Of a stretch of DNA of 64,000 nt, positions 6,587 through 35,803 are shown in pieces. How positions within the stretch are numbered: the first letter of the stretch is position 1; each line of letters starts with the position of its first letter. The position numbers and the translations under genes are program-made. Source of the DNA: Gerris lacustris (taxonomy: Eukaryota > Arthropoda > Insecta > Hemiptera > Gerridae); the NCBI GenBank assembly GCA_951217055.1, contig OX578281.1, positions 29,064,101 to 29,128,100 on the forward strand, read 5' to 3'. The notes under the pieces were generated by a model. That model searched no databases. It was not told the DNA's origin and saw nothing but the letters and a program-made list of their open reading frames with translations.

Positions 6587-6676
<90 letters not shown>
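6587..6676. repeat. (TA)n microsatellite
   Basis: About 45 TA units between the decayed hammerhead-like motif and the left inverted repeat of the element at 6718-7007. Confidence 0.97.
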
Positions 6677-6677
<1 letters not shown>

Positions 6678-6717
6678 CAACGATTTAATACCGTGTTTGC
6701 ACACTGCAATAGGCTAT

Positions 6718-7007
6718 ACCATTTGTGACAGACACCAAGGGATGTACCACGCAAGCGTGAGATATGCAAGTATGGCGGTATGAGAGCACGCTCGTCTCTG
6801 ATAAGCCCTATATCTCATCTTCTTGATATGGTATAGGTCCAGAGTTGGGCGGGCATCGTCGGGCCCCTGATGAGTCGGACGCGACGAAACGATGCAGGAC
6901 ATAGCGTAATGCCGAGCCAACATCTTAATGACGTAATGTCTGATGTTGGAACAGTTCCTATGTGTCACGCTTGCGTGGTACATCTCTTGGTGTCTCTCAC
7001 AAATGGT
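6718..7007. mobile_element. Element with 43-bp terminal inverted repeats containing a hammerhead core
   Basis: Left arm 6718-6760 and right arm 6965-7007 are inverted copies of each other (41 of 43 positions, from ACCATTTGTGACAGACACC inward). The element is flanked by TA dinucleotides and lies between two long TA arrays. The 204-bp interior is GC-rich relative to the surroundings and carries an intact hammerhead core. Penelope-like retroelements often carry inverted or partial terminal copies and hammerheads, so a Penelope remnant is the best guess. A MITE that inserted at TA and captured the ribozyme is the alternative. Confidence 0.65.
6853..6895 (+). ncRNA. Hammerhead ribozyme, complete conserved core
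   Basis: A 43-nt motif. Stem III is GCATCG (6853-6858) with CGATGC (6890-6895), extended by U16.1-A15.1. The cleavage triplet is GUC ending at 6860. Stem I is the self-complementary GGGCCC (6861-6866). Then come the invariant CUGAUGA (6867-6873), stem II GUCG/CGAC around the loop GACG, and the invariant GAAA (6886-6889). Every conserved core base is present. Stem I has no loop, so a monomer could not close it. GGGCCC can, however, pair between two molecules, which recalls the dimer-acting small hammerheads reported with Penelope-like elements, although there stem III is the reduced one. Activity is inferred, not shown. Confidence 0.72.
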
Positions 7008-7169
<162 letters not shown>

Positions 7170-35220: not shown

Positions 35221-35518
35221 ATATAAAGGAACATCCAAAGAGTTTGAGTTCGGCCAAAAAAACATCAATTTACATAACACCAAATAAGATTTGGTAGAAA
35301 GGTATGAAAACTTACGATTTTTCAAATCCTGTCTTCTTGTCACTTTCTTTGTTGATCTTATAGGAGTTTTCTTTCGGAATTAAAGCTTAAATTAAGAGGA
35401 TATATCTTAAAGTAGACTTAGATTTGGAGAGAACGAGATAAGCATCACTGACATTTCTCAGTTTACACGGAGGGTTTTTACTTGAAAGTCAGTCCTACTT
35501 TGAAGCAAGAAGAAGGCG

Positions 35519-35803
35519 ATGGTTGAGGATCGTAGAAAGGCCAAGGCGGAACTCTTGACCAGAATGAAGCCGCTTTTGTTGGACTTCGCCGTCAGTTGTC
35601 TGGTCGACATGCCTGAAGACATTGTCGAGCACGGTTTCAGATACTTTGACACGTTGCGTCAACACCGCGACGTCGTTGTATCCGAACCCGGCCAATCTCT
35701 TTCTCAAGACATACCTATGGCATCCTCTGTCTCGGTCAAGAGCTATGCTGAATCCGCCGCCGACCTGACGCATAAGGAGGGTGACTCCGCTATGTCATTC
35801 TAA
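35519..35803 (+). CDS. Small RIIa-fold (PKA regulatory-subunit-type dimerization/docking) protein
   Basis: A complete 94-codon ORF; an in-frame TGA lies 15 nt upstream of the ATG (TGA, five codons, ATG), which fixes the start. Residues about 17-50 (MKPLLLDFAVSCLVDMPEDI, then VEHGFRYFDTLRQHR) follow the RIIa pattern: a hydrophobic helix, a central Pro-Glu-Asp-Ile-Val turn, then a helix ending Tyr-Phe-x-x-Leu. This matches the N-terminal dimerization/docking domain of PKA type II regulatory subunits and related sperm/ciliary proteins that bind A-kinase-anchoring-type helices. The C-terminal about 45 residues are Ser/Ala-rich and unstructured-looking; no cAMP-binding domain follows. GC is far above the neighbourhood, supporting real coding. 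Lack of introns could mean a retrogene. A role in the axoneme or sperm is inference only. Confidence 0.82.
   Translation: MVEDRRKAKAELLTRMKPLLLDFAVSCLVDMPEDIVEHGFRYFDTLRQHRDVVVSEPGQSLSQDIPMASSVSVKSYAESAADLTHKEGDSAMSF

What the first reader, a model, noticed from the sequence alone, without database searches (positions are those of the whole stretch)
6853..6895. Intact hammerhead ribozyme core with a loopless palindromic stem I
All invariant residues (CUGAUGA, GAAA, GUC cleavage triplet) are present, with a 4-bp stem II and 6-7 bp stem III, in only 43 nt. Stem I is the self-complementary GGGCCC without a loop. Self-cleavage would therefore need two molecules, or a tandem transcript, pairing through GGGCCC. 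Small dimer-acting hammerheads associated with Penelope-like elements are known, but those reduce stem III; here the reduced helix is stem I. That permutation is unusual.
Basis: partly seen in the sequence, partly recalled or inferred. Interest (0 to 1): 0.88.

Follow-up and report, generated by a model that had tools for sequence, protein, structure and literature searches.

The report
Ribozyme needing two tandem copies
A pond-skater genome carries a family of 302-letter repeats, each with a hammerhead self-cutting RNA core that lacks one of its own arms, so the RNA would likely cut itself only when two neighbouring repeats pair up, and the repeats likely spread as circles of RNA copied back into DNA.

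Summary
The motif is real: 6853-6895 matches Rfam Hammerhead_3 with 42.6 bits (curated cut-off 48.5), and stem I is GGGCCC with no loop. Of 39 loci found with a ribozyme-free query, 25 hold tandem units at 302-bp spacing (up to 8); 16 hold both orientations, all 16 head-to-head. Insertions tend to end at fixed unit positions (u150, about u190) in TA-rich DNA. In 11 arrays, variants private to one array sit in every unit (5) or in one unit (24), never in between, as expected if one circular or uniform multimeric RNA was copied round and round. The anatomy implies that stem I can form only between two units, so multimers could cleave but monomer circles could not. Known double hammerheads share stem III; this would share stem I. 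Untested: cleavage, RNA circles, the mobilising enzyme. Weak points: constraint on the ribozyme is marginal (P 0.03-0.09), stem I shows no covariation, the active fold is a minor predicted state. Filed as a new variant of retrozyme-like elements.

The parts
6853..6895 (+). hammerhead core, type III order, without a loop on stem I
   Evidence: sequence; RF00008 42.6 bits, (same score for 7 copies in L077)
6853..6859 (+). stem III, 5' strand (GCATCGT)
   Evidence: pairs with 6889-6895
6860..6861 (+). predicted cleavage site, between C6860 (u302) and G6861 (u1)
   Evidence: position of the GUC triplet; cleavage itself untested
6861..6866 (+). GGGCCC: self-complementary stem I with no loop; predicted to pair with the GGGCCC of a second unit
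   Evidence: only self-complementary 6-mer of the unit; GGGCCC at 37 of 40 and 47 of 50 loci
6867..6873 (+). conserved CUGAUGA
6874..6885 (+). stem II with a 4-nt loop (GUCG GACG CGAC)
   Evidence: loop variants in other copies
6886..6889 (+). conserved GAAA
6890..6895 (+). stem III, 3' strand
6766..7010 (+). sense arm of the insertion: unit positions u208..u302 then u1..u150, ending at the family's commonest end u150
   Evidence: locus L116 is this window copy; L116 position 1 = window 6200
6686..6765 (-). antisense arm: partial head-to-head copy, unit positions u100..u181; looks like a terminal inverted repeat with 6960-7010
6587..6676 (.). (TA)n microsatellite on the left of the insertion
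7009..7169 (.). (TA)n microsatellite on the right of the insertion

Best explanation
This is one copy of a 302-bp repeat family in a water-strider genome whose every complete unit holds a hammerhead core with a loopless GGGCCC stem I, so that its RNA would likely cut itself only where two units pair through GGGCCC, and it likely spreads by reverse transcription of RNA circles. Proposed steps. (1) Tandem arrays are transcribed (inferred). (2) In a multimer, GGGCCC of one unit pairs with GGGCCC of the next to give a 6-bp stem I, and the stem III strands pair across units; the RNA is cut at u302^u1 (predicted from the anatomy, untested). (3) The 302-nt monomers are closed to circles, probably by a host RNA ligase (inferred from retrozyme papers). 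A monomer circle has only one GGGCCC and so would be safe from re-cutting (inferred). (4) An enzyme supplied in trans copies the circle at a staggered break in TA-rich DNA, starting from both ends of the break at about u150 and u190 and going round more than once, which leaves head-to-head arrays (arrays, ends and template-borne variants are shown; enzyme and circle are inferred).
For: Motif; six sense copies plus one antisense copy with the same score in array L077. Family: 158 match pieces from 40 scored of 2263 first-look candidates; 236 from 40 scored of 1424 with a query without the ribozyme; 107 distinct loci, 112 with the five RF00008 rows that got no locus. Tandem: 25 of 39 loci, 86 spacings of exactly 302, longest run 8; both orientations at 16 of 39, in head-to-head order in 16 of 16 (150 rows typed from the 236 matches). 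Fixed ends: of 80 outer ends at 40 loci, 26 lie at u150 and 14 at u189-191; of 70 loci, 31 join one end of each kind and 4 join like with like. Targets: 30 of 40 loci have (TA)5 or more within 25 nt of an end; at the other 10 the longest word shared by the two flanks averages 9.2 nt against 5.4 in 200 re-pairings (largest 6.6); 11-bp flank repeats are plain at two arrays. Template: at positions covered by 3 or more units, variants private to one of 11 arrays are in all units (4) or in one unit (22), none in between; with two units, 1 and 2. Units on one strand of a locus differ by 0.7-1.9%, units of different loci by 6.0%. Both sides of the cleavage site are present at 40 of 40 loci, so templates ran across it. 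Selection: at the >=2-loci threshold, shared variants hit 1 of 43 ribozyme sites against 39 of 258 others (P 0.026), 2 of 43 against 43 of 259 with 50 loci (P 0.039), while private changes are level (0.47 against 0.40 per site). Copying at both ends of a break and internal start of reverse transcription are reported for a Penelope-like element (PMC11167929, passages).
Against: No RNA or cleavage data. The motif stays below Rfam's cut-off here (42.6) and in the genome (best 44.8 against 48.5). Stem I shows no covariation: the variants seen (5 of 30, 3 of 40) break the palindrome rather than replace it. Selection is marginal: P 0.053 and 0.056 at the >=3 threshold, 0.09 without loop II, 0.14 and 0.23 at thresholds 4 and 5. 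The active inter-unit fold is a minor state in the energy model: 0.9% of the ensemble for 422 nt, 0.015% for 602 nt. A circle of the consensus unit is not markedly more folded than shuffles (z -1.96). The window's own copy has one sense core only, and just 4 of the first 70 loci have two on a strand by a strict pattern. Arm 5' ends are not clearly piled up at u1, so cleaved linear RNA leaves no plain trace. A mobilising enzyme was not found: the search for GIY-YIG did not complete.
Confidence: 0.62

Rival explanations
1. Retrozyme-like repeat with a dead ribozyme: stem I lost its loop in an ancestor, the core is carried along because the family is young, and circles or multimers arise another way (back-splicing, tandem DNA read-through).
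For: Energy model puts the active fold at 0.9% or less; score under the Rfam cut-off; selection marginal; private changes are as common in the core as outside.
Against: No variant shared by 3 or more of 50 loci falls in the motif (0 of 43 sites against 23 of 259, P 0.056); the gap left is exactly self-complementary and is the only such 6-mer in the unit; exactly 302-bp tandem units.
Confidence: 0.2
2. Classical satellite or MITE: the arrays grew by unequal crossing-over and the inverted ends are terminal inverted repeats of a DNA transposon.
For: In the window alone the element looks like one, with 51-nt arms 90% complementary next to TA repeats.
Against: The inner breakpoints of the arms vary from copy to copy while the outer ends are fixed; in 16 of 16 two-orientation loci the whole arrays are head-to-head; private variants are never shared by only some units of an array, as stepwise duplication would give.
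Confidence: 0.06
3. The ribozyme acts in trans between two separate RNAs (true dimer), rather than between neighbouring units of one transcript.
For: The domain-swapped dimer of two 43-mers is a nested structure at -36.5 kcal/mol against -27.4 for two monomer minima; many loci give a transcript with a single sense core.
Against: Against the monomer ensembles (2 x -15.0) the gain is about 6.6 kcal/mol, i.e. micromolar RNA (own arithmetic); the competing full duplex is lower (-39.1); tandem arrays offer a neighbour on the same strand.
Confidence: 0.12

Closest known systems
Metazoan non-LTR retrozymes (Cervera and de la Pena 2020, PMC7229834; passages seen)
   Same: Small non-coding repeats of 150-450 bp in tandem, one hammerhead per unit, target duplications longer than 4 bp when present; Penelope-like elements suspected as helpers.
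   Different: Theirs carry type I hammerheads; here the monomer has type III order. Stem I, not stem III, is the defective helix. Head-to-head arrays with two fixed ends are not mentioned in the passages seen.
Double hammerheads of newt/axolotl repeats, avocado sunblotch viroid and Penelope-like elements (PMC6466107, PMC7229834, PMC7761336; passages seen; Lunse 2017 not held)
   Same: Single motif poor or inactive, tandem or dimeric RNA active, a self-complementary sequence joins two motifs.
   Different: There two motifs merge stems III and the palindrome sits in loop III; here stem III is a full 7 bp and stem I is the shared palindrome.
Plant LTR retrozymes and viroid type III hammerheads (PMC7936874, PMC7761336; passages seen)
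   Same: Type III order, 4-bp stem II with a 4-nt loop.
   Different: Those have a stem I of 6 bp capped by a 6-8 nt loop that contacts loop II; here there is no loop I. No LTR features were looked for.
Type III hammerheads of HDV-like RNAs and of termite and dipteran genomes (PMC7936874; passages seen)
   Same: Type III order in animals.
   Different: Those have a longer than usual helix I with a pseudoknot to loop II; here helix I has no loop.

Membership tests
Hammerhead ribozyme (RF00008) | conserved core CUGAUGA, GAAA, GUC in order with stems II and III | tested here: met
Hammerhead ribozyme (RF00008) | stem I formed within the motif, with a loop that contacts loop II | tested here: not met
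   GGGCCC directly followed by CUGAUGA; can be met only by a second unit
Hammerhead ribozyme (RF00008) | score over the curated cut-off of 48.5 bits | tested here: not met
   42.6 in the window, best 44.8 of 35 matches, 68 scored, in the genome
Hammerhead ribozyme (RF00008) | self-cleavage after GUC | not testable with these tools
   needs transcription in vitro
Metazoan retrozyme | unit of 150-450 bp in tandem with one hammerhead each | tested here: met
   302 bp, 25 of 39 loci tandem
Metazoan retrozyme | type I hammerhead | tested here: inconclusive
   monomer order is type III; read across two neighbouring units the block order is that of type I, with the unit as loop III (own reading)
Metazoan retrozyme | target-site duplications longer than 4 bp | tested here: met
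   10-14 nt shared words at 6 of 10 loci free of TA repeats, 4-7 nt at the other 4; 11 bp at two arrays; not readable in (TA)n
Metazoan retrozyme | expressed as circular RNA | not testable with these tools
   no transcriptome at hand; template-borne variants are indirect
Double hammerhead (newt, ASBVd, PLE) | weak or absent stem III with a palindrome in loop III | tested here: not met
   7-bp stem III; palindrome is stem I
Double hammerhead (newt, ASBVd, PLE) | tandem motifs | tested here: met
MITE / DNA transposon | constant terminal inverted repeats | tested here: not met
   arms are partial or multi-unit head-to-head copies with variable inner ends
Penelope-like element | reverse transcriptase with GIY-YIG endonuclease | not tested
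   search did not complete

The most novel reading that the evidence does not exclude
A hammerhead that is wired to work only in concatemers: stem I is a loopless palindrome, so each active site is built from two neighbouring units that share stem I, concatemers are cut into 302-nt monomers, and monomer circles are immune to re-cutting; the circles are then copied from both ends of a break in TA repeats, round after round, into head-to-head arrays. It would be the stem I counterpart of the stem III-sharing double hammerheads.
Probability: 0.5. Interest if true: 0.86.

Novelty: new variant of a known kind. Interest (0 to 1): 0.72.

Why it matters
If true, it shows a second, independent way to make a self-cleaving RNA depend on being a multimer, by sharing stem I instead of stem III, and it gives a simple answer to how a circular RNA with a ribozyme avoids cutting itself open. 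The genome also keeps a readable record of how such RNAs are copied into DNA: fixed start points, both ends of the break used, many turns round one template. That makes the long-suspected circular-RNA step of animal retrozymes testable in an easily kept insect.

Tried and rejected
MITE reading: the inverted arms around the window motif first suggested a DNA transposon; the tandem array and the varying inner ends ruled it out for me.

Viroid-like rod: the consensus unit folded as a circle gives -99.3 kcal/mol, z -1.96, with 63% of bases paired against a mean of 66% in shuffles; not rod-like beyond chance. No second ribozyme was found on either strand of L077 480-2440 at E<=1 (other hits were RUF21 and microRNA models, which I take for AT-repeat and inverted-repeat artefacts).

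Other loopless examples: the pattern GTC-N6-CTGATGAG-N6..20-CGAAAC gave 68 viral-contig stretches; none had both a self-complementary N6 and a stem III of 4 or more pairs (the one with a self-complementary N6 counting G-U, L023, has 2 pairs). In prokaryote genomes 118 stretches were reported, the scan stopped at its limit, and 80 loci were given and examined: none with stem III of 4 or more and stem II of 3 or more. This covers exact 6-nt gaps only, and no eukaryote genomes beside this one. A 22-mer of the inverted arm is in no viral contig.

Type I hammerheads in this genome: 0 matches, 73 scored of 117,928 candidates, but the control genomes were silent too, so this says nothing. The number of exact motifs in the genome was not obtained: the pattern search did not complete. 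The conserved-exon search for the organism failed; COX1 settled it. Covariation of stem I could not be tested: one family, one genome.

Papers: passages only for PMC10085705, PMC3088659, PMC7229834, PMC11167929, PMC6962438, PMC7936874, PMC7761336, PMC13421425, PMC6466107, PMC8490949. Absence in print rests on the searches in an open-licence library; the most relevant paper on dimer-acting hammerheads (Lunse 2017) is not held.

Full report
What is there. At 6853-6895 the window holds every conserved residue of a hammerhead ribozyme in type III order, with a 7-bp stem III (counting U6859-A6889) and a 4-bp stem II. Rfam's type III model covers it from end to end with 42.6 bits, E 4.9e-8 in 501 bp, but below the curated 48.5; the whole window has no match at gathering scores. 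The model pairs GGG with CCC across no loop. One strand cannot do that, so as a single motif it has no stem I. The 43-mer's lowest fold is another structure (-13.7 kcal/mol; the form with stems II and III only is -9.8).

Where it sits. The window is part of contig C6 (29064101-29128100) of a 937-Mb genome in 69 contigs. Contig C69 (15,443 bp) carries a COX1 (Pfam) that is 100% identical over 98% to that of Gerris gibbifer and 99% to Aquarius najas. Ends of contigs C2 to C6 (six stretches of the eight read from C1 to C6) are made of TTAGAGGTGG repeats, a motif that a 2026 paper ascribes to the pond skater Gerris lacustris (PMC13421425, passages). So this is a gerrid, most likely a Gerris; the species is not settled.

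A mobile family. With the window element as query, the best 40 of 2263 candidate places gave 158 match pieces; with a query that leaves the ribozyme out, 40 of 1424 gave 236; the Rfam type III model gave 35 matches, 68 scored of 102,652 candidates, best 44.8 bits, none over the cut-off. Merged, these lists name 107 distinct loci, or 112 with the five Rfam rows that got no locus. The unit is 302 bp. I number it from the predicted cut, u1 being the first base after it. In array L077 six sense units follow one another at exactly 302 bp, after an antisense part-unit; all seven cores score 42.6 bits. Of the 39 loci in the rows listed (150 rows typed, of 236), 25 have same-strand neighbours at 302-bp spacing, the longest run is 8, 86 spacings are exactly 302, and at 16 loci both orientations occur, in head-to-head order in all 16.

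How it gets in. The window's apparent terminal inverted repeat is an antisense part-copy: 6686-6765 is u100-u181 and 6766-7010 is u208 through u302/u1 to u150. Across the 40 loci first fetched, 26 of 80 outer ends lie exactly at u150 and 14 at u189-191; of 70 loci, 31 join an end near u150 (u136-156) with one near u190 (u181-207), 4 join like with like, 17 have one end that is a 5' end, 18 have another kind of 3' end. Inner ends scatter, with more at u70-139 and u190-209. 30 of 40 loci have TA repeats within 25 nt; at the other 10 the two flanks share words of 9.2 nt on average, against 5.4 when flanks are re-paired at random (largest of 200 means 6.6). Two arrays show 11-bp duplications plainly. 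I read this as copying started from both sides of a staggered break, at two preferred places of the template. A Penelope-like reverse transcriptase is reported to cut and extend both strands and to start inside the RNA (PMC11167929, passages); whether this genome has a suitable one did not complete.

What was copied. In the 11 arrays fetched through the ribozyme-free query, I listed variants seen in one array only. Where three or more units cover the position, 4 such variants are in all units, all of them in arrays with both arms, 22 (8 of them gaps) are in one unit, and none is in some units; where two units cover it, 1 and 2. For example u18 is A in 8 of 8 units of the array on C2. Stepwise duplication of DNA should leave variants in some units. 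A single circular template, or a multimer of identical units, copied round after round leaves what is seen. Units on one strand of a locus differ by 0.7% (separate segments) to 1.9% (same segment), opposite arms by 3.8%, loci by 6.0%, gaps counted. Both sides of the cleavage site are present at 40 of 40 loci, so templates ran across it.

Is the ribozyme kept by selection? Weakly supported. In 40 loci, 1 of 43 ribozyme sites has a variant shared by two or more loci against 39 of 258 others (P 0.026); at thresholds of 3, 4 and 5 loci the motif has none, against 21, 15 and 14 others (P 0.053, 0.14, 0.23). With 50 loci it is 2 of 43 against 43 of 259 (P 0.039), and 0 against 23 at three or more (P 0.056); without loop II P is 0.09 and 0.054. 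Private changes, which should be mostly decay after insertion, are no rarer in the motif (0.47 against 0.40 per site). The first 40 loci were found with a query that included the motif, a mild bias. Of 27 complete cores in the 11 arrays, 18 are identical to the reference, 6 share a loop II change, one of these with a stem I change as well, and 3 have other single or double changes. Among the 30 loci found by the Rfam model, which is biased to good cores, stem I is GGGCCC in 25, and loop II is GATG in 21. Stem I variants break the palindrome; none replaces it.

How it would work. In a transcript with two tandem units, GGGCCC of unit n and GGGCCC of unit n+1 make a 6-bp stem I, and CGAUGC of unit n with GCAUCG of unit n+1 make stem III, the 259 nt between them being its loop. 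The structure is nested. Energy models find it within 3.4-3.9 kcal/mol of the best fold in 602 nt, yet it is only 0.9% (422 nt) or 0.015% (602 nt) of the ensemble; tertiary contacts are not modelled. Two separate 43-mers can make the same swapped dimer (-36.5 kcal/mol, best duplex -39.1, two monomer minima -27.4). Either way cleavage needs two units, and a monomer circle, with one GGGCCC, could not re-form stem I. That last step is inference.

Against what is known. Animal retrozymes are tandem repeats of 150-450 bp with type I hammerheads; plant ones carry type III (PMC7229834, passages). Double hammerheads are described as two motifs merged through stems III, with a palindrome in loop III and tandem motifs (PMC6466107, passage), and Penelope-like ones as lacking helix III (PMC7761336, passage). 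Ordinary type III motifs have a 6-bp stem I with a loop of 6-8 nt (PMC7936874, passage). Here stem III is full and stem I is the shared palindrome. In the papers found by my searches I saw no such case, but I read passages only and the 2017 paper on dimer-acting variants is not held. I file it as a new variant of retrozyme-like elements that would work like a double hammerhead; it fails the defining stem III feature of those, and the type I feature of animal retrozymes is met only if read across two units.

Noticed in passing
window 35504-35803 (+): A 99-aa open stretch weakly resembles an RIIa (PKA regulatory subunit) domain, E 0.0045, 17.1 bits against a cut-off of 22.4; the protein search found no relative.
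   Followed up: partly
L237-L242 (ends of contigs C2-C6): Contig ends consist of TTAGAGGTGG telomere repeats; the two ends read of C1 do not.
   Followed up: partly
L046, L004, L010, L024, L033 (viral contigs): Hits of the loopless pattern that, read by eye, look like ordinary type III hammerheads whose stem I loop happens to contain GTC.
   Followed up: no
L107 548-696 and 880-1246: Both arms of this insertion begin at or next to the predicted cut (u1 and u3), as if a cleaved linear RNA had been the template; one locus of 40, and arm 5' ends as a whole show no clear peak at u1.
   Followed up: partly
L099, L100, L112: Single-arm insertions that begin at about u190 and end at u150 or u188, so about u190 serves both as a 3' end of one arm and as a 5' end here.
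   Followed up: partly
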